From Natribaculum luteum (GTDB lineage: Archaea; Halobacteriota; Halobacteria; Halobacteriales; Natrialbaceae), in NCBI RefSeq assembly GCF_023008545.1, contig NZ_CP095399.1, positions 1-64,000 on the forward strand: 64,000 nucleotides of DNA, given 5' to 3'. Below the pieces are notes generated by a model. That model had not been told where the DNA came from. It did not search any database and was given only the letters and a program-made list of their open reading frames with translations. The translations under genes were made by a program, and so were the position numbers. Shown piece by piece: positions 12,983 through 36,719 of the stretch. Position 1 is the stretch's first letter. Each line of letters opens with the position of its first letter.

Positions 12983-13336
12983 TTAGTCTTCTACTTTGGC
13001 GCTTTTCTTTTCTGCGTCTTCAATACGACCCACCTTCTCATTGAGTGATTCTGTAAGTGTAGCAAACCCTTCTGCACGCTTCTGGACGGCTTCGTCCAGC
13101 TCTTTGCGGAATTGGCAGGTAGAGCACCTGGTATCGATCGCTTACGTTCCAGATTAGAGTCTCATATTCATGCTTAGATTGGAGCTGGTCCGTCACGATA
13201 TCCTGCGAAAGGTGATAGAGGAGCACCGCTGGCGTCAGGTTGTAGTCATTATCTTCATCCACGCGCAGGATGTCGTTCTCTGCGCCAGAGAGCAGCGGGA
13301 TCTGTGCTGGATGGACGATTCCGACGTTGCCAATAT
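12983..13336 (-). pseudogene. Decayed 3' end of a restriction-methylation-specificity gene
   Basis: The minus strand encodes, in more than one frame, pieces that match the C-terminus of the 989-residue protein at 27064-30033: IGNVGIVHPAQIPLLSGAE, then LTPAVLLYHLSQDIVTDQL, then NVSDRYQ and YLPIPQ, and a different tail ending KKSAKVED. A frameshift lies near 13105-13130. The ISH3 element is inserted at 13336; across it, the sequence near 14776-14830 seems to continue the relic, also with indels. It therefore represents a second, older copy of that gene. Confidence 0.82.
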
Positions 13337-13404
13337 CGGTACTTCCCGACTGGTGTGAGAGCTGGAGCTAAAGCGTTGGTCTCATGAGGAAGATGTCTGG
13401 TTGA

Positions 13405-14584
13405 GTGAATGTGTTCAGTATCCCTCAGCCAGACGGTGTTCTTTCGGATTCGGACGTGAAAGATTTAGCGGAAGACGTCATCTGCCAGCTCCCCTTGCCA
13501 GGGATCGAGGGCTCGCCCCTCGATCCCGGCGATATCTGGGTTGTTGTCATTCTTGCAGCAGTCAATCAGACGTCCATCTGGGAGACGTGCAAGGACAACG
13601 ACAACGCTGCCTGTGATGATACTGTCATGGACTGGCTCCATACGCTCAACCGAGAGTGGCTTGAGCGGGTTGCTAACCGCCTTCTCAGGGAGGTGGCGAT
13701 GACGATCCTCGACCCTGATCGGTCGAGGATCGTCTCCATTGACTTCGTCGATAACCCCTACCACGGAACGTACGCCGATGAAGAAGGTGAACTCTGCCGC
13801 ATGCACGCGAAAGACGGAACAACGACGTGCCACCGGTACTGCACGGCGTATCTCGTCTCGAACGGAAAGCCAGTGACGCTGGCGATGACGTACGTCCGTA
13901 GTGATGAGAAAGAGGCCGACGCGGTCGAGCGCGTCCTCGACCGCGTCGAAGCCTATCCCTTCGAGATAGAGCTTCTGTTGGCTGATCGTGGCTTCTACAA
14001 CGAACGTATTCTGCGCCGCTCACGGGAGATTGCTGCGACTGTCGTTCCCGTCCAAAAGAAGGGCAAGCGCATGAGGAAGAAGCTGGATACGCACTGCTCG
14101 TACATGACAACCTATCGGATGTACAAAGGCCGCGAGCGGGAACTGGAATTCCCGCTCGCGGTCGCTGTATCATATCACGCCGGAGATCGCGGGAAAAGCG
14201 GCGAGGTCGTTCGAGGCTATGTGGCGTGCGATCTGGCCGATCGCACGCCGAAACAAGTCGAACGGCTCTATCGAAAACGGTCAGCGATCGAAACGAGCTA
14301 CCGTGTATTTCGCCAAGCACGAGTGGTAACGACGACACAAGACCCAATCATCCGCTTCGCGTTCGTCCTGGTTGGATTCCTGTTGGAGAACCTCTGGCTT
14401 GTGCTTCGATGGGCGGTCGTCGTCGCCCCCCCAGCGGGGCGGGCGCGACCTGCCCGAGGAATTCACGTTCAAGACCTTCTCTGACTGGATCAGACATGCA
14501 TTAGAGGAAGAGCTAGAGCGGAGTTGGGAGATCGAGATGAACGGAACAGGTGTGCCAGAAGCATACGCGCCGGCCGCGGGCTGA
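13405..14584 (+). pseudogene. ISH3-family transposase with a single frameshift
   Basis: The frame from 13405 encodes an ISH3-type transposase with candidate catalytic residues in SIDFVDNPYHG, LLADRGFYN and RSAIETSYR. It shifts frame at a run of seven C bases near 14426-14432. Downstream, the plus-one frame continues with QRGGRDLPEEFTFKTF to a stop at 14584, which is the expected C-terminus. One base in a homopolymer could be a real mutation, a programmed slip or a sequencing error. Together the two frames give a product of about 390 residues, the usual size. Confidence 0.88.
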
Positions 14585-15287: not shown

Positions 15288-15842
15288 ATGGATAACCAGA
15301 ACTCAATACTCTATCCCAAGGGTTTCGAAGACCTGATCGTCCAGACCAGTAGTAACGACCGTTACGACGAGATGGGAGCTGTCCTCAGTCCCGACGAACA
15401 ATATCGCTACTACCTGTGGCGCGAGTGGGACAACAGCCAACCCACTGTTGCTTGGCTCATGGCAAATCCGAGTACCGCTGACGGTTTTTCCAGTGACGCG
15501 ACGATCAATCGCGTGTACGGCTACTCCGACCGCTGGGGCTACGGTAGCTTCGTTGTTGCCAATCTGTTTGCCTACCGTTCTAGCGAACCCACCGATCTTG
15601 ACGATGTTGACGATCCAGTTGGGCCGCGTAACGACGAAATTCTTCAAGATGTCGCGTCGAAGGCCGACCTCATGGTCGGGGCCTGGGGATCCCCGGGTGA
15701 CAGGTATGGACGTCCCAAAGAAGTCCTACAAATGCTTGATATCAATATCCATGCGTTGACCGTCCTCTCAAGCGGAAATCCGGGCCATCCGCTGTTCAAA
15801 GATGGCGATCTTGAGCCAACCCCCTACGAGTACAATGACTGA
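15288..15842 (+). CDS. DUF1643 domain protein
   Basis: The 184-residue protein has the DUF1643 pattern: YRYYLWREWD, then WLMANPSTADG, a DATINRVYGYSDRWGYGS segment, the conserved NLFAYRSSEP and DDPVGPRND, and a late WGSPGDR. The family is widespread in plasmids, phages and islands and its biochemical role is not known. A TATA-like ACACTTTTACC lies about 30 bases before the ATG. The gene stands alone between remnants. Confidence 0.85.
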   Translation: MDNQNSILYPKGFEDLIVQTSSNDRYDEMGAVLSPDEQYRYYLWREWDNSQPTVAWLMANPSTADGFSSDATINRVYGYSDRWGYGSFVVANLFAYRSSEPTDLDDVDDPVGPRNDEILQDVASKADLMVGAWGSPGDRYGRPKEVLQMLDINIHALTVLSSGNPGHPLFKDGDLEPTPYEYND

Positions 15843-15889: not shown

Positions 15890-16185
15890 AGCGCACCATT
15901 TTATTACGCCAACTCAACCAGTCCTGTAGTCGATGATGTACCAGCCGTCCTCTGGCTCGAACAGGAGGTCGATCTGGCCACGGACGTAGGTCCCAGTTGG
16001 TTCGTGGTAAGCGGTCAGCTAATACTCTGGAAAGATACCAGACGTATCGGAAGGGGAGCTCGGAAGCAATCGAAGTCCCTTCGAAGTTGTCGATGACATT
16101 CTCCAAATTATCGAGCACCTCGCCCTCGTATTGGTCGAAGAACGGGTCGACATTCAACTGGCCCTGAATGTACCGTTCTGAAGAC
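15890..16185 (-). pseudogene. Decayed fragment of the AddA-like helicase-nuclease gene
   Basis: The minus strand matches part of the C-terminal nuclease region of the protein at 19274-22843. Shared pieces include FFDQYEGEVLDNLENVI and, at DNA level, a near-identical run across 15940-16020 against 19630-19712. The frame is lost in the middle and both ends are missing. It is the second relic here whose intact partner lies in the island to the right. Confidence 0.85.
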
Positions 16186-16193
16186 GGGGCATT

Positions 16194-17192
16194 CTAATTT
16201 TCTTTTCGAAATATTAAGATATTTTGGTGTACCATCGATGGAATGTAGGAGAAAGGATAGCCGTATACGTGGAGATCTTTTGATGGATCGTACCAGATGA
16301 GGTTTGCCTTGAGTGTTAGCCCTACCTCTTGAATTGATCGCGCAAGATCTGCTGAAAGGAAGTTATAGGATTGCTCCCGGTACATATCGCCGATGAACAC
16401 AGCGATATAACCGTCTTCTTTGATCACTGGCTTGAACTTCTCGAATTTAGTCTGCATATCGTCCAGCCACTCATCCTTCGTTTGGAGTGAGTTCGTGTTG
16501 AAGCCGCCCAGTTTACTTTCCCGCGTTTTGTTCACGTTCCGGGTCTGCTCGACCTTGTCCATCGACCAGTAGGGAACATCGGTTAGGAGAAAATCAACTG
16601 AACTATTCTCAAGTTCCGTGATCAGCTCTTCGCAGTCACCATGACGGATATCTTGGCTCTGGAGTTTTCCCTTTCCTGCTGCAGCCCGATCAGCGTTCTC
16701 AGCTTCGAGTACCTCTTCGTAGACTTCGATCCACTCGTCATTGATCTCGAAGCCGATCGCCTCACGGAAGCCGCTCCCTTCGTACTCGCAGAGACTTGCA
16801 CCGAAGAGTGTCCCACCAACTCCAGCAAAGGGATCTAATATGACATCGCCAGCTTGGGTGAACCGCTGAATAATATCTGCACAGAGACGAGGGGGTTTCT
16901 GCCCGCCGTGTTGGCCCCGGAGCTCGTGCTGGAAGTCTGGTGGATACTGTTTATCGAGAACGGACTTGGTCGCAAACTTCCACTCTTTCCCCGTCAGGTC
17001 ATTAATCGGATTACGCTCGTCGTAGATCCCGCGACCTTCGATGTACGTTTGATGATCAGCCAGCTCATCTGTATTGATGACCTCGCCGTCCTCAACAGGG
17101 AGTGTATCTTCTTTCGCTCGTGACTCGTCGAATTCCCCGTCATCAGTTGTGAAGAGGCGGCTCTGTTCATGCTGGTCCGGGTCCTCGCTCAT
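16194..17192 (-). CDS. DNA methyltransferase (amino-MTase), island gene
   Basis: The 332-residue protein has an AdoMet-binding motif I, DPFAGVGGT, at 120-128, preceded by a motif X-like KPPRLCADIIQRFT. The catalytic motif IV appears as TDVPYW at 204-209, a variant of the usual D/N-PP-Y/F. The order X-I-IV and the DPF motif fit an N4-cytosine or N6-adenine DNA methylase. It is divergent from the gene at 17293, with about 100 bases between them containing TATA-like elements for each strand. It may protect host DNA while neighbouring nucleases act on foreign DNA. The modified base and target are not known. Confidence 0.85.
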   Translation of the reverse strand: MSEDPDQHEQSRLFTTDDGEFDESRAKEDTLPVEDGEVINTDELADHQTYIEGRGIYDERNPINDLTGKEWKFATKSVLDKQYPPDFQHELRGQHGGQKPPRLCADIIQRFTQAGDVILDPFAGVGGTLFGASLCEYEGSGFREAIGFEINDEWIEVYEEVLEAENADRAAAGKGKLQSQDIRHGDCEELITELENSSVDFLLTDVPYWSMDKVEQTRNVNKTRESKLGGFNTNSLQTKDEWLDDMQTKFEKFKPVIKEDGYIAVFIGDMYREQSYNFLSADLARSIQEVGLTLKANLIWYDPSKDLHVYGYPFSYIPSMVHQNILIFRKEN

Positions 17193-17292
17193 GTACTGGT
17201 AATCTTGATCGGGATCTTATAAACGATAGCATCTTACTGAGACCGGCCACCCAGCTATAGATTCATATTTATATACCACATCATTTAAGCCA

Positions 17293-18675
17293 ATGCTGTC
17301 TGTCATATCGATCACCTTGCAACAGGTCTACGCCTACTCGGATAACATCTTAGAGGGTGTGCGGTTTGCGGAAAACCTCGACGCACATAGCTCGCTACTC
17401 GATCTTACAGACGAGTCATTCGACGACCCGAGCCAGCCACGATATACGTTTTCCTCATCGGAGGGTGATACGATCGAACTCATCGTTCGAGGGCAGTATG
17501 ATCACTGGACGCTTCCGGAGAGCGTCGAGAACGCTGTCACATACATCGGTCGCCCGGATATCGTACTCGTCGATTCAACGGGCGATCCGATCCTCGGCGG
17601 CGAATTCACCGATGCAGCTCCGATCGGGAACATGATCTATCAGCGGGAGGGTCGTCAAGTCGGTCTCCTCCAGGCTGGCTTTCCGACCGTCTATGATACC
17701 GCCTATACAGCGACTGACCGAACGAAGACTCCACCAGCGCCACGATTTCCACCAGCGACAATCGTTTTGCTCAGGTTGGCCTACTGCCAAAAGTTCGGCT
17801 TGCCAGCATTCCTGTGTTTCTACAAGGACGAGACTGGCGAAGCGCGAGCGAAAGAAAAGTACGAGGGCTATCCCCCGACACGGGACTACGATACCGGGAC
17901 GAAATATCTTCACGAATACCTCAGCGCCCAACTCTTGGATGCGGTATACGGAACATATTCCGGAACGGTCGAAGATGCGCAGCGAGATATCCTGCGACAC
18001 ATGATCGAATACCTCCAGGACACGCCAGTTGTGCGCTCCAGTGCGTCGTCGAGACTTGAGAAAGACGTACCGGCATTGGCAAATCAGGCTCTAATCAATG
18101 GACAACAAGAGGAATTCATCGACCATCTCATCGAGGTGATCAACGGGCGAGAAGAACCCGATCCAGCATATGATATTACGGATATGGCCCCAGATCGGTT
18201 GGTTGAGTGGACAGGGGGCCACCACAAGAGGAAACCACTGAATGCAACCGTGTTAAACAGTAGCCTCAGCCCGAAGACCGTCGGATCTGGGCAAAACCCG
18301 TACATCGTCGCCGATACCCCTGCACTGATTGACGCAGTAAGTTCACGCTATCCTCCCCTCACGGGAGCGCTCCGTGAGCTGAATTCCGATCTTGAGACCG
18401 TCGTAATCACGATGAAGTTCTTCCAAAAGAAGCGGTCGAACTGTCTCGTGAAGGTCGATCCATACTCGGGTGCAATTGCTGCGTTTGGCGAGTGGCTCTC
18501 GCGTGATATCACCAACGAGAAAATCCGGAACGTGCTCGTGTACAGCCACTCGGGGTGCGCAGTGACCGACCTCGAAGTTAATAATAAACTCCACCGTTCC
18601 CTCGAAGAAACTGCTGACGTGGTCATCGTGTCAGTAGGCGACGACAACAACGCAGATCAATGGCACCTGATGTGA
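17293..18675 (+). CDS. Unknown 460-residue protein, possible nuclease
   Basis: I do not recognise a named family. Residues 88-106 hold PDIVLVDSTGDPILGGEFT, a strand-turn-strand with a leading PD and a later E, which is reminiscent of a PD-(D/E)XK nuclease with threonine in place of lysine. It is followed by a conserved-looking YQREGRQVGLLQAGFPTVY. A TATA-like ATTTATATACC lies about 20-25 bases before the start. The gene overlaps the next by 16 bases and is divergent from the methylase. In that setting a restriction endonuclease partner is plausible but unproven. Confidence 0.75.
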   Translation: MLSVISITLQQVYAYSDNILEGVRFAENLDAHSSLLDLTDESFDDPSQPRYTFSSSEGDTIELIVRGQYDHWTLPESVENAVTYIGRPDIVLVDSTGDPILGGEFTDAAPIGNMIYQREGRQVGLLQAGFPTVYDTAYTATDRTKTPPAPRFPPATIVLLRLAYCQKFGLPAFLCFYKDETGEARAKEKYEGYPPTRDYDTGTKYLHEYLSAQLLDAVYGTYSGTVEDAQRDILRHMIEYLQDTPVVRSSASSRLEKDVPALANQALINGQQEEFIDHLIEVINGREEPDPAYDITDMAPDRLVEWTGGHHKRKPLNATVLNSSLSPKTVGSGQNPYIVADTPALIDAVSSRYPPLTGALRELNSDLETVVITMKFFQKKRSNCLVKVDPYSGAIAAFGEWLSRDITNEKIRNVLVYSHSGCAVTDLEVNNKLHRSLEETADVVIVSVGDDNNADQWHLM

Positions 18676-19277
18676 ACCTCTCCGACGAGCCGTATCGTTC
18701 ACCAAGCGAATACACCGATGAGGCGTCACTACTCCATCTCTGGCACCAGCTGGTCCGCAAGGAAAATTGGAAAGAAGACTACCTTGTGCCGCGTGGGTCT
18801 TCCTGGCCCAATATCCGTGTCTGGAACGGGGACAGCTTTGACATCGGATACGTGAACAAAAACGATGCCCGTGTGAATCTCATCGTTCAATCGCCAGAGC
18901 CACCCTTTGACTTTGTGATTGGCTACTGTATCGGCAACGAATTGGATCGTGAGCCGTCCGATGCTCGATTGGTGAGCAAGATTAGGAAGGCATACGAACG
19001 GACAGAAGAGACCCTATCGGACATCTCTGATGTGTTTGATGACTCAACAACGGTCTACCGCGCACTCGTCATGGCAAAAGACCCTGCCGTCGGAAACCCT
19101 GAGAGTGAGGCAGATCTCTGGGAAGATATCCTGTTCAATTCGCTAAAACAACCGCAGAAATCCTTCATGTACCTCACTGTGCCTGACGATGATTCGGGAG
19201 TTGAACGCTTAGTTCGGTATCACCCGAACTTCCCTTCGGACGGGCGTTCGGAGCTCGAGTCGCTTCTTACGGACTAG
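18660..19277 (+). CDS. Unknown 205-residue island protein
   Basis: The gene starts inside the end of the preceding one (16-base overlap) and ends overlapping the convergent AddA-like gene by four bases. The product is acidic, soluble, and has no membrane segment or metal site that I can see. The part around FDIGYVNKNDARVNLIVQS and FDFVIGYCIGNEL looks like alternating strands. Its tight coupling to the 460-residue protein suggests they act together, for example as two subunits. Function is unknown. Confidence 0.75.
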   Translation: MAPDVNLSDEPYRSPSEYTDEASLLHLWHQLVRKENWKEDYLVPRGSSWPNIRVWNGDSFDIGYVNKNDARVNLIVQSPEPPFDFVIGYCIGNELDREPSDARLVSKIRKAYERTEETLSDISDVFDDSTTVYRALVMAKDPAVGNPESEADLWEDILFNSLKQPQKSFMYLTVPDDDSGVERLVRYHPNFPSDGRSELESLLTD

Positions 19278-22200
19278 TCATCCCACACGTGGCACCGGTC
19301 CATATATGGACACGTTCCACAGCGCGTCGTAATGTCGGGGTCCACGTCATCCTCAGGAGCGGGGCTCGGCTTTGCCTGTAACCCCTTCTCCCCGATGTCG
19401 AGATGCCGATCGAGCCGCGAGAGCTCCTCTTCGAACATTCCAGCATCGACATCGACCGTCTCCTCGGACACCTCTGGGTGGATGTAGATGAGATGCGTGT
19501 CCGCGAGCGTAATGTCCTCGAAGTTATTCTCGAGAAGCCACGCATAGCTCGCGAGTTGGTAACGATACGTGTCGCTCACGTATTCACCCTTCTTAGCAAC
19601 ACGACCAGTCTTGTAATCGATTACGTGCCAGCCGTCCTCTGCCTCGAATAGGAGATCGATCTGGCCACGGACGTAGGTCCCAGTGGGTTCGTGGTAGGCG
19701 GTCAGCTCGTATTCAGGCAGTATACCTGAGGTATCCCGGGGGAGGTTCGACGAGACAGCAGTACTGTCGAAGTTCTCGATGACGTTCTCGAGTTCGTGGA
19801 GAACCTCGCCTTCGTATTGATCGAGGAACTGCTCTGTACTTGACTCACCGTGCACGTAACGTTCGAGCGCTTTGTGAGCAGTATCCCCCCACGTGTCCCT
19901 TTCCAGACTTCCGGGCGGCTCTGCCCCCGGTGGAGTCGGAGAGCGGATCGTACTGACGTTCTGGAGCATTCGGTACTGGAACCGGAGGGGACACTCACTC
20001 AAGTCGTGGAGGGAGGTCGGATTGATGACCCGAGGCATGAAGTCCTCCGTAACGTCGACCACGTCGTGTGTGAGGTCCGTCTCGATCCCGGCGTTAATTT
20101 CCTCTACGCCAATCGGGTCTTCCTCGACATATTCGCCAGGGTCGATCATGTCTACGGCGATCGTCGTATGCCTGTGAACAGTCTCGCCGTCATCCTCCCA
20201 CTCAAGCGGGAGATTGTATTCACCCTGTTGCCAACCATCGGTGGGGCAGAGGAATTCTCGCATCGCTGCCGCCCACACGGTGTACTGATTAGGCCACCAT
20301 CGACTGCCGTTGCTGGTGCCGAAAATAACGTGATCCGATGCACGGGTGAACGCGACGTAGAGGGTTCGCCAGAACTCGGCCAGTTCTTCTCGAATGTGGT
20401 CATTAAGCGGGTGCGGATACTGGAGATCCCCTGTGTTGTTATTCCGATTCTGACCGATCCAGATAGTCCCCCGGTCGTCGTCCTCAATGTACGAACCCCC
20501 AGGTCCGGCACCCTGGGTTATCGCGTTATGTGGCCCGGTGACCGGATGGAGTGCCGCCCCCTGGCGGCGACTCAGTTGGAGTCGATCCGTATGTGGGAAC
20601 GCTATCCCTGGACGGATCATGTCTGGCAGCACGACGATAGAGTATTCGAGCCCCTTCGACTGGTGAACGGTCGTCAGCCGTACCGTCTCGTCAGAGTCAT
20701 CGTCCGCGATTTGGGCTACTCCGTAGTCTCCGTCGTTGTTCAGGGCACGGGAGCGAAGTCGTGTGAGCTGTCGGAGGAACTCCTGATACGAGAGTAATTC
20801 CTCTTCCTCCCAATCGTTGACGACCTCGGTCAGCAACCAGAGGTTTGCGTACTTCTGCTTCCCGCTAACGTCACCCAGGACGATCGCGTCGAAAGCCGTA
20901 TGACGGATTATATTCTGGATGAGCGAGGCCTTCGAGGACTCCCGTTCCCATCGGAGGTCGTCCCGGAGCTTGACGAGCTTGTCTAGCCGGTCTCGGTCCT
21001 CCTCTGGGAGCTCTTCTGGCCAGTCTTCGTCTTCTTTAAGAACATTCGAGAGGTAGAAACTCTCGCTGGCCAGATATCGAAGGCTTTCGTCGGAGATGGC
21101 AGTGACGGGAGACCGAAGAATTCGGATGAGCGAATCCTTGGAGTGCGGGTTGGCGAACCAATCCAGAACGTCGATGAGAAGACGCACCTCAGGCTCGGCG
21201 AAGAGGCCCTCGGAGACGTCGATGGCGCAGTCGACACCGTAATCGCGCAGCGCTTCGGCGTACTGCTCCATGTACGTTCGCCGCTGGAAAAGGAGCGTGA
21301 CATCGCCCGGAATCGGATCGCGTGGCTCCGGATCGTCGAAGACGTCCGAGTCCTCGTCAACGACCTGTAGCTGGTTCTCACTCAGAATGCCACTAATTGC
21401 CTGGGCCACGCGCTGGGGTTCTTGAGCGAACCAGTCGTCCTTCGAGCTTGCACCCCCGAGGTTGAGGACGTGAAGGTGGGACTGGTCGATGTCTGCTTCA
21501 TACCGATTCCGTCTCGGATTAAGTGGCTCGAATGGGATATTGAAACGACCAATATCGCCCCGAGCGTTGTCGTTGAAGATGCCGTCGAACAGGTGATTCG
21601 CCGACTCGACGAGATCCGGATGGCTGCGGAAGTTCGTTTGGAGTGGCAGATATGCCAGTCCATCTGCTTCCAGGAACTCGTCCGGACCTTCCGCGTCGCT
21701 ATCCGCGTGCTCGATTATATCTGCGAAGATGCCCGGCTCGGCAGACCGCCACTGGTAAATTGACTGCTTGACGTCCCCGATGAGCATGAGCTGGGTTCGG
21801 GGCGAAGTATTATCGATGAACCTGCAGAGAATCCGGCACTGCGCGTAGTTCGTGTCTTGGAATTCGTCGATAAAGAGATGGTCGAAGCGGTCACTGAGAC
21901 TTTCGGCCCACTCGCTGTCCGGGTTCTCGCTCAGATAGTTCCATACGTGGTATGTGATGTCTGTATGCGACAGCAGCCCTTCCTTTACTGTCTTTTCTTC
22001 GTACAGTCGGTCGAACTCCCGAAGCACCTCGCTGAACGCCTCGACCACTTCGAGATTCGTGTCGTAGATGTCATTCGCGTGCTCAACCAAGTCTCTGGTT
22101 GGTTGCGTATTAGTCCCTGTCAGGGATCGAATAATATCTTGGACCGCATCGTTATCGAGAGGCGGCTCGTGACCCTGGTGGATCGTGTGGACGAGCGCTG

Positions 22201-22843
22201 ACTCAAGCTCCTCAGCAGCCTCGTCAATAGTCCAGCAGAACTCCCTGCTCTTACTATGAACCGTTTCCAACAGCGTCTGGACGTTGTCCGGGGGATACGT
22301 TCTCCAGCTCTCGTCGGGGTATGCCTCGTCGAGGGTATTGATGAGGTCTGCAATATGGTCATCCTCTTGCAGCTCCTCCATTATTTCATCGTAGAGATCC
22401 TCGTCCTCCAGTCCCTCGCGAATCTCGAAGGCTGGCGAAATTCCCATCTCAACTGCGACTTCCTTAAGCAGGGTGTGAGTGAACGAATCGATAGTCTCAA
22501 TATAGCTCTCCGTTTCGATCCATCGCCAGAGATCGTTATCCAGAGAGACGTCGGCCGCCTGCTCGTGCTGTCGAAGTCGACGTTTGAGTTTGGTCTTGAG
22601 TTCGCTCGCAGCGTCCTTGGTGAAGGTCGTAACGAGGATATCGTCCATCGGGTTCCCATCTTCCTCGTGGTACTTTTCAAGGACAGCCTCGGCGACGATG
22701 TCGATGAGGGTGGTGGTCTTACCGGTCCCTGCTCCGGCTCCAACGACCACCCGACCTCCGCCATCGTGGTATTCGTCGAAGACTGGTTGTTGGTCCGCTT
22801 CCTCCAAGTCGTGCGAATCTTCCGGTGTTTCAAGATACGTCAT
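19274..22843 (-). CDS. AddA-like UvrD-family helicase with C-terminal Fe-S nuclease
   Basis: The 1189-residue protein starts with a superfamily 1A helicase: Walker A GAGAGTGKTTT at 36-46, FTKDAASELKTKL (motif Ia), LFIDEFQDTN (motif II), GDVKQSIYQWR (motif III), TVHQSKGLEY (motif V) and LYVAFTRA (motif VI). The C-terminal region is a RecB/AddB-type nuclease with GQIDLLFEAEDGWHVIDYKTG and YRYQLASYAWLL. A cysteine in LSECPLRFQYR plus CGTCPYMDRC at the very end form an AddB-type 4Fe-4S site. It would unwind and cut linear duplex DNA. Its stop overlaps the gene at 18660 and its start overlaps the AddB-like gene by four bases. Confidence 0.9.
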   Translation of the reverse strand: MTYLETPEDSHDLEEADQQPVFDEYHDGGGRVVVGAGAGTGKTTTLIDIVAEAVLEKYHEEDGNPMDDILVTTFTKDAASELKTKLKRRLRQHEQAADVSLDNDLWRWIETESYIETIDSFTHTLLKEVAVEMGISPAFEIREGLEDEDLYDEIMEELQEDDHIADLINTLDEAYPDESWRTYPPDNVQTLLETVHSKSREFCWTIDEAAEELESALVHTIHQGHEPPLDNDAVQDIIRSLTGTNTQPTRDLVEHANDIYDTNLEVVEAFSEVLREFDRLYEEKTVKEGLLSHTDITYHVWNYLSENPDSEWAESLSDRFDHLFIDEFQDTNYAQCRILCRFIDNTSPRTQLMLIGDVKQSIYQWRSAEPGIFADIIEHADSDAEGPDEFLEADGLAYLPLQTNFRSHPDLVESANHLFDGIFNDNARGDIGRFNIPFEPLNPRRNRYEADIDQSHLHVLNLGGASSKDDWFAQEPQRVAQAISGILSENQLQVVDEDSDVFDDPEPRDPIPGDVTLLFQRRTYMEQYAEALRDYGVDCAIDVSEGLFAEPEVRLLIDVLDWFANPHSKDSLIRILRSPVTAISDESLRYLASESFYLSNVLKEDEDWPEELPEEDRDRLDKLVKLRDDLRWERESSKASLIQNIIRHTAFDAIVLGDVSGKQKYANLWLLTEVVNDWEEEELLSYQEFLRQLTRLRSRALNNDGDYGVAQIADDDSDETVRLTTVHQSKGLEYSIVVLPDMIRPGIAFPHTDRLQLSRRQGAALHPVTGPHNAITQGAGPGGSYIEDDDRGTIWIGQNRNNNTGDLQYPHPLNDHIREELAEFWRTLYVAFTRASDHVIFGTSNGSRWWPNQYTVWAAAMREFLCPTDGWQQGEYNLPLEWEDDGETVHRHTTIAVDMIDPGEYVEEDPIGVEEINAGIETDLTHDVVDVTEDFMPRVINPTSLHDLSECPLRFQYRMLQNVSTIRSPTPPGAEPPGSLERDTWGDTAHKALERYVHGESSTEQFLDQYEGEVLHELENVIENFDSTAVSSNLPRDTSGILPEYELTAYHEPTGTYVRGQIDLLFEAEDGWHVIDYKTGRVAKKGEYVSDTYRYQLASYAWLLENNFEDITLADTHLIYIHPEVSEETVDVDAGMFEEELSRLDRHLDIGEKGLQAKPSPAPEDDVDPDITTRCGTCPYMDRCHVWDD

Positions 22844-25800
22844 AGGTCTGCCCTCTCAGGAACAAGGCACATGTCTTTGTACACGCAGCTATCGCAGCCA
22901 TCCAGCTGTACAAATCCTGGATCAACTTCAAATGTGAGGTCGTCCGCAGTCATCTCGCTCAGGTGGTCGCTGAGGTCACTATCTCGGGCACTCTGCCGCG
23001 AGTACCACGCTCGTCTCGATAACGGATTGGGGTCGTCCTCTAGGTGACGTTCCGGATCGTTTTGGAGCGATTCTCGGAACGCATTAATATGCCCCTGCTT
23101 GATAATCCCGTATCTACTGTCCGGACCTCGATTGTAGTGGTCCTGATAGATGACTCCCGCAAGACTCGACTCTACGTTGGTCAGGGTATGGAGACGGTGG
23201 TCGAGGGTAAATTTCGTTTTCCGGGAACAGTCGTCGACGTTCCCGCACGACTGACACAGAGAGTCGCAGTCTTCATCCCGGAATGCGCGGTCGTAGGAGT
23301 CCCAACAAGCCTTGATTGCCTTCTCTGCGTAGGAGGGATGACGAACATTTAGGACCGGTAGAGCGTAGCCATCGTCATTGTTGAGGATATCCCGTCGGTA
23401 GCCACCGATTCGAACATCCGTGCCGTCGATGGTCTCCGTCTGACTTTCTGCCCAAGTCCACTGTCGGTCAACCTCCGCAGCGCCCTCGAGCTCGTGCTGA
23501 ACCAACTCCCATTCGTTCTTCAGCGCTGGGAGGAGCTGGTAGCGTTTGCTCTGCAGGTCGTCCTGATCATCGAACCACTCCTCCAGCTCATCGAGGTCAT
23601 CGAACTGATGAGCCAGTTGATACCGATCCCGGATCTTCTCGTTGATGATGGATTCCCAGGCCTCGTCGAGATAGGGGCTGGTGTACTGGTGACGGATGAC
23701 CTGCGGTAGTCGTCCGACCCGATGGTGTGGTCGACTACTGGAGTAGTATGGGATCTCGTCCCGCTGGACTGAGTCGCCCTCGTAGTTGAACAGCAGTTGA
23801 TAGAAGTAGTATTTCAGCTGGCACTGGCTGAAGAGGTCGAGTTCGTGGGTACGAATCGGTTCGCTAACCACATCTGCCAGATCCAGATCGTTCTCGAATG
23901 CAGGCTCGTCGGTGGAGACTGAGATTTCCGTGGGAGGCCGTACATATCGATCGTATCGCGGCATCGTCTCCTGCTCCACGATATCCCGATCGGTACGAGC
24001 AGCAATTTCCCGAACGTCCTGGGTCGTAATGGCCGGGCGACGCATCGGCCAGAGACGCTCCGTGTGGTGATAGAGGAGCCGGAGCCTGTCCTTCTCGGAG
24101 ACGTTCACCGCCATGTCTTCCCACGTAGCGCCATCCGGCTCGTCCGGCGTTGCTTCCTCGGGCTGGGGCAACCACTCGTCGACTCGAACTCGCTCGGCGA
24201 GGTCGTTCGTGGGCAGCAAGTCGACGAACGGCGACCACTCCACTGTATTCCCCTCTGAGTCCTTGTAGTGGTGGAGCAGCGTTATTTCGGCGTCGCTGGC
24301 CCGCATCACGTTCTCGTAGTAGTCGAGATCGATGTTGTATTGGGTTCGGCTGGACTGGAGACGGAGGAAGGGATAATCTCCAGTCTCCGAGCGTTCTGCG
24401 ACTTCGTCTCGGAGCTCGTCATGGAGGAACGACGCTGGCTCGTTCTCAACCGGGAACTCTCCAGTCGAGACGCCGAGGAGATAGACGTAATCCGCTTCGA
24501 CGAAGTGAGCGTCGCCAGCATCCATTACACGGACAGCGTTGGCGTCGGTGTGGGTCTTCCCGATGGTCTGGCTACCGATGACCTCGGTGATTGCACGGTT
24601 GACCTCTTCCCACCCGGAATCAACGTCGAATATATCCTGTATGTATTCGTAGTACTGGCCCGCAGCTGCTGCGAGTTGGTAGACCTCGGACGCATGTGAG
24701 GTTGAGTGGGTCTCGGTGATGCGAGTTCGCTTTAGGTCGACTCCAGGCCCGTCAGGACGGTTACGTTCCCGCGTGACCGTGAGGTAGATGTGACTCCCAA
24801 GGAGGGTGCGAAGGAGACCACGGAGCTGAGGACCTGTTTCCGGGGCACCATCCCGCTGTGAGGCGATCCAGTCCATGTAGTCCTTCATAAGATCCCAGGC
24901 CATATCCCAGCCAGTTGCCGACTCAACCTCGGCTCGCCATTCCGAGAAACTCCGCCATCCGTCACTCTCCTCCCACTTGTGCAACCGCTGTTCCAAATAG
25001 AGGAAGACACGCTGAGGGAGCGGCCAAATCGAGCTGTTCGCTTCTGGGTGACAGAACCCCAGTCGGAGAGGTGCCGTCACGTCATCGTAAGAAATCTCCT
25101 GGTCCTCTGACGCTGCCTCAACCAGCCGGAACGTAGCGTCGATGAAGCGATATCCGGCGGCATGGGCGAGGGGTTCCTTGGTCTCGATGTGGTACGGGAT
25201 CTGGTTCGTTTCGAAGATGTCCTCGATAGCGGCTTGATACCGGTCGGCGCTACGAGTGAGGACGAGAATGTCCTGTGGGTCGGCACTGTCAGCCAATTTT
25301 TCGCGAATATCCTTGACAACGTACTCAACCTCCCGTCGTCGTTCCGGTGCTTCGATGAAGTCCACTGTACCAGGAAGATCCACTTCGTTCCCGACTGCTG
25401 CATCGAAGAGCGACTGGCCAGACTCGTCTGGGATAGACCACTCTGGATCGTCGTCGAAGGATTGATCTCGTATTGTTTCCAGCCGTTCCTTCTGCCGTTT
25501 GTAACTCCCTTTTCCGAGGTAGAAGTGAAGGTCAGTCCCATCGATGTTGTCCTCAATTTCCAGGAGGAGGCGTAGTGTCGGATTGTCGAAGGTGCTGATA
25601 GTAGCAACACCCAGCCAGTTGGTCTCGCCGAAAACGTCATTCCAACAGTCTTCGACTCTTTCTCGTGCAGCGCGAACCAGGTGACTCCGTGAAACGTAGA
25701 TTTGTTCTCCGAGATCCGACACCAAATCTTCCAAAACGATAGTTAGCTCCCTGAACTGATTGAGACGCCGTTGCCCAGTCTGTTGCGCGTAGACGTTCGA

Positions 25801-26256
25801 GAGATCCCTTGCGATTGATTCGAGTTCGTCGTGGTCTCGGCCCGCGTCTGTACAGCGGTAGTAGTCGTTGAGTTCGTTATAGAGAGACTCCAGCGTCTCA
25901 TCATTCGAGTATGGGACCGTCTCGGCGAACTCCTGCAGTGACTCATTATATTCGCCATCGATAGCACGGTCGAAGATCTCCTCTATCAGCCGGGTAATAA
26001 GCTCGTCAGAAAGGTCGTTTGGCTCGATTCCTGTATCCGCTTCGATGAGACGCCCCGCAATCTCGTCGATAGTGGTTAGCGATGCAGTCTCCCCAAGTTG
26101 AGTCCCTTCTCGGGTCAGTTTTTCGTGTAAGTTTCGTCGACTCAGTCCTTCGCCAACGATACATAGTCGCTCTGAACTACGTGATGGTTGGCTGGGATCC
26201 TGTGAATCCTCGATTAGAGAATCAACCGGTGGTCCGGCATGGAGGGTAACAGCCAT
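22840..26256 (-). CDS. AddB-like protein without a Walker A motif
   Basis: The 1138-residue protein overlaps the AddA-like gene at ATGA and precedes it in the operon. A UvrD-like inactive helicase body is suggested by ILVLTRSADRYQAAIEDIF, YVYLLGVSTGEFP and its length, but no GKT nucleotide-binding motif exists. The C-terminal part has LFSQCQLKYYFYQLL and, at the end, CDSCVYKDMC, the cysteine pattern of the AddB iron-sulphur staple. The nuclease centre looks degenerate: IGGYRRDILN and LPVLNVRHPS stand where G-x-DRID and DYKTG would be expected. It is probably the structural or DNA-scanning subunit of a heterodimer whose cutting is done by the AddA-like subunit. Confidence 0.82.
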   Translation of the reverse strand: MAVTLHAGPPVDSLIEDSQDPSQPSRSSERLCIVGEGLSRRNLHEKLTREGTQLGETASLTTIDEIAGRLIEADTGIEPNDLSDELITRLIEEIFDRAIDGEYNESLQEFAETVPYSNDETLESLYNELNDYYRCTDAGRDHDELESIARDLSNVYAQQTGQRRLNQFRELTIVLEDLVSDLGEQIYVSRSHLVRAARERVEDCWNDVFGETNWLGVATISTFDNPTLRLLLEIEDNIDGTDLHFYLGKGSYKRQKERLETIRDQSFDDDPEWSIPDESGQSLFDAAVGNEVDLPGTVDFIEAPERRREVEYVVKDIREKLADSADPQDILVLTRSADRYQAAIEDIFETNQIPYHIETKEPLAHAAGYRFIDATFRLVEAASEDQEISYDDVTAPLRLGFCHPEANSSIWPLPQRVFLYLEQRLHKWEESDGWRSFSEWRAEVESATGWDMAWDLMKDYMDWIASQRDGAPETGPQLRGLLRTLLGSHIYLTVTRERNRPDGPGVDLKRTRITETHSTSHASEVYQLAAAAGQYYEYIQDIFDVDSGWEEVNRAITEVIGSQTIGKTHTDANAVRVMDAGDAHFVEADYVYLLGVSTGEFPVENEPASFLHDELRDEVAERSETGDYPFLRLQSSRTQYNIDLDYYENVMRASDAEITLLHHYKDSEGNTVEWSPFVDLLPTNDLAERVRVDEWLPQPEEATPDEPDGATWEDMAVNVSEKDRLRLLYHHTERLWPMRRPAITTQDVREIAARTDRDIVEQETMPRYDRYVRPPTEISVSTDEPAFENDLDLADVVSEPIRTHELDLFSQCQLKYYFYQLLFNYEGDSVQRDEIPYYSSSRPHHRVGRLPQVIRHQYTSPYLDEAWESIINEKIRDRYQLAHQFDDLDELEEWFDDQDDLQSKRYQLLPALKNEWELVQHELEGAAEVDRQWTWAESQTETIDGTDVRIGGYRRDILNNDDGYALPVLNVRHPSYAEKAIKACWDSYDRAFRDEDCDSLCQSCGNVDDCSRKTKFTLDHRLHTLTNVESSLAGVIYQDHYNRGPDSRYGIIKQGHINAFRESLQNDPERHLEDDPNPLSRRAWYSRQSARDSDLSDHLSEMTADDLTFEVDPGFVQLDGCDSCVYKDMCLVPERADL

Positions 26257-26367
26257 GTAATAGACAGATATACCAACACCGGATAAAGATACCGTTGGAC
26301 CTACATGTCGAACGTAGCTCAGGGTTATGGTTTCAAGTACCCACTTGAAGTCTCACCCGTCCATCGA

Positions 26368-26568
26368 CTAACTTTCTTCTACTGCCTCAACGATCCGGTC
26401 GTAGAGCTCCCGGTCGTGCTGTTTTAAGATGTGGAGATCTTCCTCGAAGGATTCTATCTGTTCTTCAATGTCTGCCCGCATCTTGTTAGGGTGGTACGTG
26501 AGGTTCTTGTATTCCGATTGAACAGCCTCCCGTTGGCTTTCCGTAAGTATTCCACGACGTTTCTCCAT
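26368..26568 (-). CDS. Small helical haloarchaeal protein (RGILT-type)
   Basis: The 66-residue product begins MEKRRGILTESQREAVQSE and continues with a charged helix containing MRADIEEQIESFEEDL. Short proteins with an N-terminal RG(I/Y)LT followed by arginine-rich helices are common in haloarchaea, often beside regulators. It sits in the same direction as the AddAB-like pair, 111 bases upstream of it. Possible regulatory role; function unknown. Confidence 0.6.
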   Translation of the reverse strand: MEKRRGILTESQREAVQSEYKNLTYHPNKMRADIEEQIESFEEDLHILKQHDRELYDRIVEAVEES

Positions 26569-26600
26569 TGCTCATGATTTTACCCCCCTGCGTCAAAGGT

Positions 26601-26939
26601 CTAATTATCAATAGGCACCAGCGCTGTCTTCGATACGTCCCGCTCGAGTTTGTCCTGAACCGGGGGTGCAGGGAGGTATGCAGTCTCGCCGTCTACTTCG
26701 ACCTCCATCAGGAGCCCCTCCTCCATATACCATTGTAGTACATTAGCGAGTTGAACATCTTTCCCAGTAGTTCGACGGAGTGCCTCAGGGGATATGTCGT
26801 GGTCGTCACACCAGTCTCGCGCGGTTGAATAGAGGTACTCGTAGAGTTCGTCCGCTGTGTCTTCTTCCAGTTCCGTGAGGAGTCGAGCATAGTCAGACTC
26901 TTTGTCGTCGCTCCAGATCTCAAGCTCGATTACTGCCAT
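26601..26939 (-). CDS. Small acidic protein, possible winged helix
   Basis: The 112-residue product has a helical N-terminal half and a segment, VLQWYMEEGLLMEVEVDGETAYLP, that resembles the wing of a winged-helix protein. It is divergent from the big methylase gene at 27064 and could regulate it; the shared intergenic stretch holds two TATATGGTAA repeats. No family is recognised. Confidence 0.62.
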   Translation of the reverse strand: MAVIELEIWSDDKESDYARLLTELEEDTADELYEYLYSTARDWCDDHDISPEALRRTTGKDVQLANVLQWYMEEGLLMEVEVDGETAYLPAPPVQDKLERDVSKTALVPIDN

Positions 26940-26974
26940 AGAAGGAGAGTAACTCGCGATTCACTAATAGTTTA

Positions 26975-27015
26975 CTGTATATGGTAACTAAGCTCTCGAA
27001 ACTCTATATGGTAAT
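26975..27015. promoter_or_regulatory. Tandem TATATGGTAA motifs in a divergent promoter region
   Basis: The motif TATATGGTAA occurs near 26976 and again near 27005, 28-29 bases apart in the same orientation. They lie between the small gene starting at 26939 (minus) and the methylase gene starting at 27064 (plus). They could be TATA elements, operator sites or both. The following leader to 27064 is about 50 bases, so the large gene may not be leaderless. Confidence 0.4.
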
Positions 27016-27063
27016 GGGCCCCTCGACAAAACTAAGTGGGGGTGACTTTACAGTGAGAGATAG

Positions 27064-30033
27064 ATGCCGGATCTCTCAGATTTCACTGATGAGGGCACCG
27101 ACGATACAACAGATATGATTGAGGACTACCTGACTGGCAAAGAAATTGCGGACGAACCAGAGAACAAACTCCGAAATCGATTCATTCAGCACCTCATTGA
27201 AGAACGCGGCTTCGATGAGGACACGCTGAAGACGGTTCCAGAGTGGCGGGTTCCCCCTCGGCCGTCCGGTTCAAGGAACAGTAGTGCGGCGAAACGCCCC
27301 GATTTCGTCTATTTCGACGGCCCGAATCACAATGAGAGTCCGGACCGAATCCACACCGTCGGCGAAACGAAAACCCGAGTTACCGAGGGTGATTCGGCTC
27401 ACGAGGCGGCGGAGAGCCAGGTGAAGTGGTACCTGACGAACGAATCTCAGGCGGAGTATGGAATCGCCGTCAGCGACATGGAAGACCCGTTTAAGGTCAC
27501 TGTCTTCGCTGATACCAAGGACCAAGCGGGAAAGAAGAACGTCACTCAGGTCGACTTCGATCCACCGCTGCCGGGCGAAGAACTCGACGTAGATGCGAGC
27601 ACCACCATCGGGGATCTGGAGCCGTTTGAGGAGAACCCAAAAGAACTCACATCGGACATCCGGGACTACGTCCACTCGCATGACGGGAGTGCCACCGACG
27701 ACCTGACGATGGCAAAGCAATGGGCGTACATGATCCTCACCAAGCTGAAGGACGAGGAGAAGCCCCCGTCCGAACGGCCCGCCCTTCACATCCGCGAAGG
27801 CGATGACCCCGAATCTGTCGCTAAGCGCGTGGATCAGCTGTTCAAACGGGAAGTCCTAGACAGCCACCCAGCGGTCTTCGGGACTGCCCCCGACAAGGAT
27901 ACCTGGGAAATCCAGTTCGACGATGAGACCAAGCGGTACATCGTCAGTAAGCTCCAGGATTACTCGCTCCAGAAGACTGACGCGCTGCTAATGCGGGAGG
28001 CATTCGAGGTCTTCATTACGGACGCTGTCAAGGGCGACGAGGGGCAATTCTACACCCGTCGGAACCTCTGCGAGGGAATGGCCCGAGCGACCTCACCCAG
28101 CCCGGATGACAACATCGGTGATCTCGCTGCGGGGACTGGGGGACTCATCGGTGCAGGCATCGAGGAGGTCTCAAAGAAGATCGAAAAACGGCTCATCGAA
28201 CGTGGACAGGAAGACCGTTACGCACTGGAACTGCGACAGTTCATCCAGAGTCACGTCTTCGGCGTCGACAAGGCACACTTCGCCGTCGACCTGATGGAAG
28301 CCGAGCTGGAAGCGATGGCGGAGACAGCCCCGAACGTCTACCGGAACGACAGTCTCAGCTACCACCGCTGGGACGAACAGCCACTCCCGAAGGGACGATT
28401 CGACATTTTGTTCGCGAATTTTCCATACGGGAGTGGTCTGACGAAAAGTGATACAACTGATCTGCGGGAATACGAGCTTGGTTACAAGTGGGAAAGCACC
28501 GATGGTGACAACGGTCCACGCGAGCTGACCGACGTGACGGGTATCGGCCCCTCGACTGCTGAGGACCTCCGAGACGCCGGGTATGAAGACATCGGAGACG
28601 TGTATGAGGCGGACGTCCAAGAGCTCGGTGAGATCCAGGGAATCGGCTCGGTGACGGCCGAAAAGATTCTCAATGACATCTCCGAGGAAGACGTAGAGGA
28701 GCTCCGTGGCGAAGCTGACGATGAGAAACAGGAGCCGTTCGTCCAGACGAGCCAGATCCGCGACGAGCAAGAAATTAGCATTCTCTTCATGGAGCTATAC
28801 CACGAGATGCTGAACGAAGGCGGACGGGCGGCCATCGTCTTCCCAGAGACACACCTGGTGACGGACGACTACGTCGCCTACTGGCTTCGTCGCAATTTCC
28901 GTGTCCATGGTGTCTGGGATCTGCCGGACCAGATGTTCCAGCCACACACGCACGCGAAGATGGTCGTGCTGTTCTTGGAGAAGCCGCCCGCCGACGTGAA
29001 TCCCCGCGAGGAAGACTACCCGATCTTCATGGGGACGATTGAGCAGGTCGGCCACAACCAGCGCGGTAACTCGCTGTTCAAGCGAGACGAGAACGGTGAT
29101 ATCGTCCGTGACGAGAATGGACACCGGGTTCGGAAGGATCACATCCCGGACATGGCTGAGGTGACTCTCGACTGGTTCAGCAAGGCCAAAGATTTCGTCG
29201 AGGACGCTGAGGCCGATCGGTCTTACTTTGAGGATCCCGAGGCGGAACCGGATCTGGAAGGCACCGACCTAGACGAAGAACAGGTAACGACTATCTGGAA
29301 CAGCGAAGTCGAGGACGACACCCTCATTCCCCGTGCCTACCAGCGTCAGCCCATCGAGCGGGCTCGGAAGTGGGCCGAGGAGCATGACTGCGAACTCGTC
29401 CAGCTGAGCGAGCTAATGGAAGAGGGCGTCGTCGAGGCTTTCACCGGGCATGGCGGGGTCAAAAAAGAGTGGTATAGCTCCGACAACGAGATCCCGTACA
29501 TCAACACGAGTCGGGTCAGCAAGTTCGAGGTCGCCACTGTCGGAAACCACGTCAAACGTGTGCCTCAGGAAGTTTATGATAGCAAGAAAGAGAAACTCAA
29601 GATCCAACCCGGAGATATCTTCATCGTCAAGCGCGGAGAGAACTACATCGGCAACGTCGGGATCGTCCACCCGGCACACATCCCGTTGCTGTCAGCCGCT
29701 GAGAACGATATCCTCCGCGTGAACGAGGACAACGAGTATAATCTGACCCCTGCAGTGCTTCTATATCTACTCTCTCAAGATATTGTGACCGACCAACTCC
29801 AGTCCAAGCACGAATACGAGACCATCATCTGGAATGTGAGCGACCGCTACCAGGAAGTCTATCTGCCGATTCCGCAGGACGAAGAGTTCCGCAAGGAACT
29901 AGATGAAGCCGTCCAGAAGCGGGCTGAAGGCTTTGGGACGCTTGTCGAGTCCATAGATTCAAAAATGGAGCGTGTCGGGCAGGAGTCTGAGGAGAACACC
30001 GTAGAAGAGCAGGTGGTTCAATCCGAGGATTAA
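27064..30033 (+). CDS. Fused nuclease-methylase-specificity protein with a helix-hairpin-helix insert
   Basis: The 989-residue protein looks like a one-polypeptide restriction-modification enzyme. Residues 79-103 (RPDFVYF, then GETK) resemble the PD-ExK site of HsdR-type N-terminal nucleases. Residues 300-650 resemble HsdM, with EGQFYTRRNL, an AdoMet motif GDLAAGTGGLIGA at 352-364 and catalytic ANFPYGSG at 451-458. The C-terminal third, with IPYINTSRVSK and LKIQPGDIFIVKRG, resembles a target-recognition domain. Unusually, two helix-hairpin-helix units (TGIGPSTAEDL at 492-502 and QGIGSVTAEKIL at 525-536) are inserted after motif IV. Both methylase motifs depart from consensus (LAAG for PACG/PAAG, NFPY for NPPY). 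A broken copy of its 3' end lies at 12983-13336. Confidence 0.85.
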   Translation: MPDLSDFTDEGTDDTTDMIEDYLTGKEIADEPENKLRNRFIQHLIEERGFDEDTLKTVPEWRVPPRPSGSRNSSAAKRPDFVYFDGPNHNESPDRIHTVGETKTRVTEGDSAHEAAESQVKWYLTNESQAEYGIAVSDMEDPFKVTVFADTKDQAGKKNVTQVDFDPPLPGEELDVDASTTIGDLEPFEENPKELTSDIRDYVHSHDGSATDDLTMAKQWAYMILTKLKDEEKPPSERPALHIREGDDPESVAKRVDQLFKREVLDSHPAVFGTAPDKDTWEIQFDDETKRYIVSKLQDYSLQKTDALLMREAFEVFITDAVKGDEGQFYTRRNLCEGMARATSPSPDDNIGDLAAGTGGLIGAGIEEVSKKIEKRLIERGQEDRYALELRQFIQSHVFGVDKAHFAVDLMEAELEAMAETAPNVYRNDSLSYHRWDEQPLPKGRFDILFANFPYGSGLTKSDTTDLREYELGYKWESTDGDNGPRELTDVTGIGPSTAEDLRDAGYEDIGDVYEADVQELGEIQGIGSVTAEKILNDISEEDVEELRGEADDEKQEPFVQTSQIRDEQEISILFMELYHEMLNEGGRAAIVFPETHLVTDDYVAYWLRRNFRVHGVWDLPDQMFQPHTHAKMVVLFLEKPPADVNPREEDYPIFMGTIEQVGHNQRGNSLFKRDENGDIVRDENGHRVRKDHIPDMAEVTLDWFSKAKDFVEDAEADRSYFEDPEAEPDLEGTDLDEEQVTTIWNSEVEDDTLIPRAYQRQPIERARKWAEEHDCELVQLSELMEEGVVEAFTGHGGVKKEWYSSDNEIPYINTSRVSKFEVATVGNHVKRVPQEVYDSKKEKLKIQPGDIFIVKRGENYIGNVGIVHPAHIPLLSAAENDILRVNEDNEYNLTPAVLLYLLSQDIVTDQLQSKHEYETIIWNVSDRYQEVYLPIPQDEEFRKELDEAVQKRAEGFGTLVESIDSKMERVGQESEENTVEEQVVQSED

Positions 30034-36500: not shown

Positions 36501-36719
36501 CTATGACACCTTGATCACGGCAACATCGGATGGTGTCACTATCACACGGCGCTCACCAATCGAGAATCGAACCTCGAGATCAGTCTGTGGGCCCGTCGAG
36601 TCTACAAGTCGCTCAAGGGCTTCGGCGTCGATCATCCGCTGTAGTTGGTACTCGTCTCGATCGAGGCCCTGTTCCTCGAGTGCAGTGATGATCTCGAGCA
36701 GAAGCGGTCGATCACTCAT
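36501..36719 (-). CDS. HalOD1 domain protein, 72 residues
   Basis: The product MSDRPLLLEIITALEEQG... has the helix-then-QLQRMIDAEALERLV pattern and late strands (VRFSIGERRVIVT) of the haloarchaeal output domain HalOD1. Its ATG lies inside the end of the ArdC-like gene (8-base overlap), so it is translated from the same message. A similar protein is at 61141-61401. Thought to act in signalling or regulation. Confidence 0.72.
   Translation of the reverse strand: MSDRPLLLEIITALEEQGLDRDEYQLQRMIDAEALERLVDSTGPQTDLEVRFSIGERRVIVTPSDVAVIKVS

What the first reader, a model, noticed from the sequence alone, without database searches (positions are those of the whole stretch)
16194..30033. Candidate new defence island: methylase, two unknowns, AddAB-like pair and a fused R-M-S protein
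Seen: a DNA methylase, two coupled unknown genes (the first with a PD...E-F-T motif), a large AddA/AddB-like pair and a nuclease-methylase-specificity fusion occupy one block with almost no other genes, joined by four- to 16-base overlaps. Known: methylases, helicase-nucleases and restriction subunits form defence systems such as R-M, BREX and DISARM, but I know of none with this gene set. Inferred: modification marks self DNA while the AddAB-like machine destroys unmarked linear or cut DNA.
Basis: partly seen in the sequence, partly recalled or inferred. Interest (0 to 1): 0.72.

Follow-up and report, generated by a model that had tools for sequence, protein, structure and literature searches.

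The report
Plasmid defence island of separate modules
A salt-loving archaeon's plasmid carries side by side a two-gene restriction system, an AddAB-like DNA-shredding pair and a one-protein restriction-modification enzyme; the gene set is not conserved elsewhere, so it looks like a cluster of separate defences of known kinds rather than one new defence machine.

Summary
The genes are real and at the stated coordinates, on a 93.9-kb plasmid-size contig of a natrialbacean-like haloarchaeon. The block is three modules, not one system. (1) MT332, U460 and U205: a methylase divergent from a gene pair. U460 is homologous to the N-terminal nuclease domain of restriction enzyme BsmI (profile E=5.6e-16), and its only relative sits in a complete two-methylase, split-BsmI cassette. 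U205 is an orphan of unknown role. (2) AddA/AddB-like: an obligate pair found full length in 9 of 292 haloarchaeal genomes, always B then A. AddA keeps its helicase and nuclease motifs. AddB has no Walker A, keeps four Fe-S cysteines, and has lost the nuclease D-x-K. (3) A 989-residue nuclease-methylase-specificity chain, collinear with bacterial plasmid enzymes but with a helix-hairpin-helix insertion. One twist: the left flank holds pseudogene scraps of a second, diverged AddA and 989-residue enzyme, so these two may have travelled together. Most likely mechanism: restriction enzymes cut unmethylated invading DNA and AddAB degrades the ends. Interest is moderate.

The parts
16194..17192 (-). 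MT332: DNA methyltransferase (N6_N4_Mtase, catalytic motifs in permuted order DPFAGVGGT ... DVPYW); plasmid paralogue of a MTase conserved in the host's family
   Evidence: Pfam 1.1e-20 and PADLOC MTase_II PDLC03284 1e-157; same family in 68/292 genomes, own chromosomal copy at 68%; alignment
17293..18675 (+). U460: putative restriction endonuclease, homologous to the N-terminal PD-(D/E)XK domain of BsmI
   Evidence: profile of U460 + its homologue vs BsmI structures E=5.6e-16; alone 0.13; PADLOC REase 1.6e-4; homologue lies in an R-M cassette
18660..19277 (+). U205: orphan protein translationally coupled to U460; possible small subunit of a two-subunit enzyme, unproven
   Evidence: 16-nt overlap; no family, structure, plasmid, viral or genome match
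19274..22843 (-). AddA-like helicase-nuclease: Walker A, DEFQDT (DEVQDT in one), E/D/D-x-K nuclease motif and four Cys conserved in 9 homologues
   Evidence: best solved relative B. subtilis AddA E=3e-73
22840..26256 (-). AddB-like subunit: no Walker A, four Fe-S-type Cys kept, nuclease D-x-K lost; predicted scaffold
   Evidence: B. subtilis AddB E=4e-10
27064..30033 (+). RMS989: single-chain nuclease (RPDFVYF...GETK), N6 methylase, HHH insertion (aa 485-540) and one C-terminal specificity domain
   Evidence: collinear alignment with bacterial plasmid enzymes
15908..16184 (-). Remnant of a second, diverged AddA (aa 992-1083) with two stops and a frame break, just 3' of MT332
13022..13352 (-). 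Remnant of a second, diverged RMS989 (aa 856-971), frame-broken; differences mostly at third codon positions

Best explanation
A plasmid-borne defence island assembled from three separable modules. Module 1 (MT332 + U460 + U205) is a type II restriction-modification system: MT332 methylates host sites, and U460, a BsmI-type nuclease possibly with U205 as partner, cuts unmethylated sites. Module 2 (AddA-like + AddB-like) is a processive helicase-nuclease with one motor and one nuclease, both in AddA; AddB is a structural Fe-S scaffold. It loads on double-strand ends and degrades linear or restriction-cut DNA. Module 3 (RMS989) is a single-chain type IIG-like enzyme that methylates its site through one specificity domain and cuts unmodified DNA with its N-terminal nuclease. 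Together they would give cut-then-degrade immunity, but each module is expected to work alone. Shown: homologies, motif conservation, operon structure, lack of co-occurrence. Inferred: all enzymatic activities, pairing of MT332 with U460, and cooperation between modules.
For: U460 to BsmI: 5.6e-16. Its only relative (G233) lies beside a 241-aa gene matching the C-terminal BsmI nuclease domain (8e-12) and two methylases matching the two halves of one fused methylase model. AddA/AddB pair in 9/9 loci with active-site pattern conserved. RMS989 collinear with Aerococcus and Ligilactobacillus plasmid enzymes over 83-84%. None of MT332, U460, U205 or RMS989 in the 8 other AddAB loci. G+C splits the block: MT332/U460/U205 0.50-0.54, AddA/AddB/RMS989 0.56-0.57. 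AddAB sits beside other restriction genes elsewhere: Mrr in L035, EVE-AAA_5 McrB-like in L032.
Against: Diverged remnants of both AddA and RMS989 in the left flank suggest that modules 2 and 3 were once linked in another plasmid lineage. Gene overlaps between U205 and AddA are unusually tight for independent modules. In two species of one genus AddAB sits among housekeeping genes with no restriction neighbours (L037, L038), so a defence role for AddAB is not certain. The control for defence enrichment around AddAB was not clean.
Confidence: 0.7

Rival explanations
1. AddAB and RMS989 form one linked cut-and-degrade system: RMS989 modifies self DNA and cuts foreign DNA, AddAB destroys the cut molecules; MT332-U460-U205 inserted later between the AddA remnant and AddA.
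For: Pseudogene remnants of a second, diverged AddA (82% aa in the better-kept part) and a second RMS989 (84% aa) lie within 3 kb of each other left of the island; differences are mainly at third codon positions (46 of 60 in RMS989), so the lost copies diverged while functional. Shared G+C of AddA, AddB and RMS989.
Against: No RMS989 relative near AddAB in 8 other loci; no close RMS989 relative in any sampled haloarchaeon.
Confidence: 0.15
2. The AddAB-like pair is a plasmid- or lineage-acquired recombination and end-repair nuclease, as in bacteria, and its position among restriction genes is incidental.
For: AddAB/RecBCD are repair enzymes (established knowledge); L037 and L038 carry the pair at a conserved chromosomal place among ABC transporter and other housekeeping genes.
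Against: Patchy distribution (9/292), often on plasmids or small contigs, with restriction neighbours in several loci.
Confidence: 0.25
3. All six genes are one new integrated defence system.
For: Physical clustering and short overlaps.
Against: No co-occurrence elsewhere, at least four transcription units in alternating directions, each piece falls in its own known kind.
Confidence: 0.05

Closest known systems
BsmI / Mva1269I type restriction endonucleases (type IIT single chain with EcoRI-like and FokI-like domains, PMC4081073)
   Same: U460 aligns with the N-terminal nuclease domain of BsmI (residues 3-188), including the PD...E-F-C region; the relative in G233 is a clean split of BsmI into two genes with two methylases
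   Different: U460 lacks the C-terminal nuclease domain; its partner gene U205 has no detectable similarity to that domain; methylase MT332 is of another family; specificity unknown
B. subtilis-type AddAB (PDB 3u44/3u4q)
   Same: Two overlapping genes, AddA with SF1A helicase and nuclease, AddB with helicase-like fold and four Fe-S cysteines; AddAB is the best solved relative of both profiles
   Different: AddB has no Walker A and no nuclease D-x-K; AddA itself carries four conserved cysteines; far below the AddA equivalog cut-off (273 vs 708 bits)
Single-chain type IIG-like R-M-S enzymes and MAD2 of MADS
   Same: N-terminal PD-ExK-like domain, N6 methylase, C-terminal half-HsdS domain; MAD2 model hit 7e-64
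   Different: HHH insertion after motif IV, motif NFPY instead of NPPF/Y, MAD2 score 216 vs cut-off 720 and no other MADS genes in the block
Orphan methyltransferases of Halobacteria (Fullmer 2019, PMC6471742; HVO_0794, PMC5867850)
   Same: MT332 belongs to a methylase family present once per chromosome in most members of the host family, with no restriction partner in the loci examined there
   Different: Plasmid copy sits next to a putative endonuclease; motif order differs from the beta-class CTAG enzyme HVO_0794, so it is not evidently that family

Membership tests
Type II R-M, BsmI-type | Endonuclease homologous to BsmI nuclease domain | tested here: met
   Profile hit 5.6e-16; the profile includes the G233 relative, U460 alone is weak (0.13; PADLOC 1.6e-4)
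Type II R-M, BsmI-type | Second catalytic domain or subunit | tested here: inconclusive
   Met in G233; U205 in the window shows no similarity
Type II R-M, BsmI-type | Adjacent cognate methylase with the same specificity | not testable with these tools
   MT332 is adjacent and divergent; specificities unknown
AddAB | AddA helicase motifs and nuclease active site | tested here: met
   Conserved in 9 homologues
AddAB | AddB partner in operon with AddA, Fe-S cysteines | tested here: met
   Adjacent in 9/9, C812/C1121/C1124/C1130 invariant
AddAB | Active nuclease site in AddB | tested here: not met
   D-x-K replaced by LPVF-type sequence in the homologues
AddAB | Chi recognition and end resection activity | not testable with these tools
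   Needs biochemistry
Type IIG-like R-M-S | Nuclease, N6 methylase and specificity domain in one chain | tested here: met
   nuclease assigned from motif D...GETK and alignment only
MADS | MAD2 equivalog plus the other MAD genes | tested here: not met
   216 bits vs cut-off 720; only mad2/mad5-like domains of one chain found among block proteins
Gabija | GajA nuclease with GajB helicase | tested here: not met
   AddA hits GajB as a generic UvrD relative; no GajA hit in the block
BREX / DISARM | PglZ, BrxC / DrmA, DrmB | tested here: not met
   No such hits among block proteins
CTAG orphan methylase (HVO_0794 group) | Beta-class N4-cytosine methylase close to HVO_0794 | tested here: inconclusive
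   MT332 has permuted motif order and close relatives only in the host family plus one genome; HVO_0794 itself was not compared

The most novel reading that the evidence does not exclude
AddAB-like and RMS989 are one mobile restriction-and-degradation system in haloarchaea, in which a single-chain R-M-S enzyme makes the cut and a one-nuclease AddAB without its own AddB nuclease destroys the product; the plasmid lineage once held a second, diverged version of both.
Probability: 0.13. Interest if true: 0.65.

Novelty: new variant of a known kind. Interest (0 to 1): 0.38.

Why it matters
It shows that the island is an assembly, not a new machine, and it gives three testable pieces: a haloarchaeal BsmI-type restriction system in which a family-wide orphan-type methylase has gained a putative endonuclease; a rare haloarchaeal AddAB family that has kept only one nuclease; and a single-chain R-M-S enzyme with an HHH insertion. 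If chromosomal and plasmid methylases share a target, the conserved orphan methylase would protect natrialbacean hosts from this plasmid's nuclease, an archaeal parallel to Dcm and EcoRII.

Tried and rejected
AlphaFold of U460 (2 sequences) and U205 (single) gave pLDDT 33-36, so no fold search was made. The genome-collection scan with the U460 alignment found nothing, as did plasmid and viral searches for U460 and U205. The idea that MT332 is the CTAG enzyme family was not supported (motif order). A shared two-gene ATPase + coiled-coil pair beside AddAB in two genomes was tested as part of an AddAB system and rejected: it occurs without this AddAB in four more genomes. Comparison of PADLOC hits around AddAB (63 proteins) and around arbitrary control places (102 proteins) gave 58 vs 18 families, but the counts are dominated by single methylases and the controls hold restriction hits too, so no enrichment is claimed. 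MADS, Gabija, BREX and DISARM were considered and not met.
Full report
What was checked. The window is the first 64 kb of a 93.9-kb contig in a 4.61-Mb, three-contig genome. ParA (225-1076), Orc1/Cdc6 (7170-8414), several transposases and a TFB gene mark it as a plasmid. The host family is probably Natrialbaceae: the chromosomal neighbourhood of the MT332 paralogue matches that in Natrinema thermotolerans, and the nearest plasmid DNA hits are to natrialbacean genera.

The block is not one transcription unit. MT332 (-) and U460 (+) diverge over 100 nt. U460 and U205 are coupled by a 16-nt overlap. U205 (+) and AddA (-) converge with overlapping stops. AddB and AddA (-) overlap by 4 nt. RMS989 (+) is divergent from AddB, with 807 nt and two small frames between. 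G+C divides the genes into MT332/U460/U205 (0.50-0.54) and AddA/AddB/RMS989 (0.56-0.57).

Module 1. MT332 is a DNA methylase (PADLOC MTase_II, E=1e-157) with motif I (DPFAGVGGT) ahead of motif IV (DVPYW), a permuted order visible in the split match to Pfam and to 2zie. Its family is found in 68 of 292 haloarchaeal genomes, nearly all in the host's own family. The host also holds a chromosomal copy at 68% identity. In the loci examined outside the window it sits among housekeeping genes with no endonuclease, so there it is an orphan methylase. On the plasmid it faces U460. U460 carries PD-x13-E-F-T and weakly matches a restriction-enzyme model (1.6e-4) and BsmI (0.13). Combined with its only relative (G233, 28% identity) the profile hits BsmI at 5.6e-16 over residues 3-188. 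That relative is informative. It overlaps by 4 nt a 241-aa gene with PD...IESK that matches BsmI residues 460-596 (8e-12). Beside the pair stand two methylases that match the two halves of one fused methylase model (PDLC03302), while the 509- and 241-aa proteins match the two halves of one restriction-enzyme model (PDLC03434). G233 thus has a BsmI-type system split into four genes, and U460 is a diverged large subunit of the same kind. Large plus small subunits are an established type IIT layout (PMC4081073), which makes U205 a candidate small subunit, but U205 has no detectable relative or motif. This part is inference.

Module 2. Full-length relatives of the AddB-like protein occur in 9 of 292 sampled haloarchaeal genomes, own included; the other eight are 29-48% identical to it. 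The AddA-like gene follows in all. Named carriers are Halalkalicoccus sp. CGA53, Halalkalirubrum salinum, Halorubrum vacuolatum, Halorubrum alkaliphilum and Halohasta salina, plus two MAG contigs labelled as Clostridia and Halobacteroidaceae. AddA keeps Walker A, DEFQDT (DEVQDT in one), a PD-(D/E)XK nuclease (D1063, D1076, K1078) and four cysteines in all nine. AddB has no Walker A, keeps four cysteines in AddB spacing (C812, C1121, C1124, C1130) and has lost the nuclease D-x-K. The best solved relatives are the B. subtilis AddA (3e-73) and AddB (4e-10). The predicted machine therefore has one motor and one nuclease. In other genomes the pair lies beside an Mrr nuclease (L035), an EVE-AAA_5 McrB-like gene (L032), or an unknown ATPase pair (L033, L034), but in one genus among housekeeping genes (L037, L038). 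A control comparison of neighbours was not decisive.

Module 3. RMS989 aligns end to end with N-6 DNA methylases of Aerococcus and Ligilactobacillus plasmids at 24-26% identity over 83-84%. The alignment shows a shared N-terminal D...ExK region, the methylase motifs and a single C-terminal half-HsdS domain; the 485-540 helix-hairpin-helix domain is unique to RMS989 in that comparison. It is related to MAD2 (7e-64) but far below its cut-off. No close relative was found in the sampled haloarchaea; only the two best candidates per genome were scored, so remote relatives may be missed.

Do they belong together? None of MT332, U460, U205 or RMS989 is found in the 20 kb around AddAB in the other eight genomes. 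The set as such is therefore not a conserved system. One observation points the other way for two of the genes. Left of the island lie a frame-broken scrap of a second AddA (15908-16184, directly after MT332) and a scrap of a second RMS989 (13022-13352). Their differences from the intact genes are mostly at third codon positions (RMS989, best-kept part: 46 of 60), so the lost copies diverged under selection and were not recent local duplicates. The plasmid lineage has thus held AddA and RMS989 in two versions, and the MT332 module sits between the AddA remnant and the intact AddA. This is the basis for the linked-system rival (15%).

Mechanism, most likely reading. MT332 and RMS989 methylate their sites in resident DNA. 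U460 (perhaps with U205) and the RMS989 nuclease cut unmodified invading DNA. AddAB enters at the ends and degrades the fragments. Homology, motif conservation and gene order are shown; all activities, the pairing of MT332 with U460 and cooperation between modules are inferred. A corollary worth testing: if the chromosomal MT332 paralogue has the same target, family members are pre-immunised against U460, as Dcm protects E. coli from EcoRII (described in PMC5867850).

Verdict. Interest is moderate (0.38).

Noticed in passing
L074:6253-10234 (genome G233): Four-gene BsmI-type restriction system in a haloarchaeon: two methylases and a BsmI enzyme split into 509- and 241-aa genes, the small one with PD...IESK.
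   Followed up: yes
L034:5734-10180, L033:7409-11843, L106, L107, L108, L109: A P-loop ATPase of about 950-1050 aa (GPYGAGKTQYLYEV) coupled to an about 450-aa gene, beside AddAB in two genomes and, in the other four, near genes that read as methylases, type I R-M or SIR2-like; no informative Pfam or PADLOC match for the L034 pair. Candidate unknown defence pair.
   Followed up: partly
L126:4938-9953 (Haloferax lucentense plasmid pSVX82-3): Relative of MT332 (31%) in a three-gene run with a UvrD/GajB-like helicase and a 462-aa protein with a possible D...DVKT nuclease motif; perhaps another methylase-helicase-nuclease system.
   Followed up: partly
L035:1-17497 (Halorubrum alkaliphilum): Two different AddAB-like pairs within 18 kb: a 1053-aa AddB type and the window type, the latter followed by an Mrr-type nuclease.
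   Followed up: no
L032, L033, L035, L089: Several carriers of the AddAB family are named as alkaliphiles (Halalkalicoccus, Halalkalirubrum, Halorubrum vacuolatum, Hrr. alkaliphilum).
   Followed up: no
window 28516-28684: Haloarchaeal L32e/RadA-like helix-hairpin-helix domain inserted in the N6 methylase right after motif IV.
   Followed up: partly
window 36712-37647: Protein with ArdC N-terminal (anti-restriction) and M78 peptidase domains on the same plasmid.
   Followed up: no
window 15288-15842: DUF1643 gene between the two pseudogene remnants, next to a transposase gene (13405-14484).
   Followed up: no
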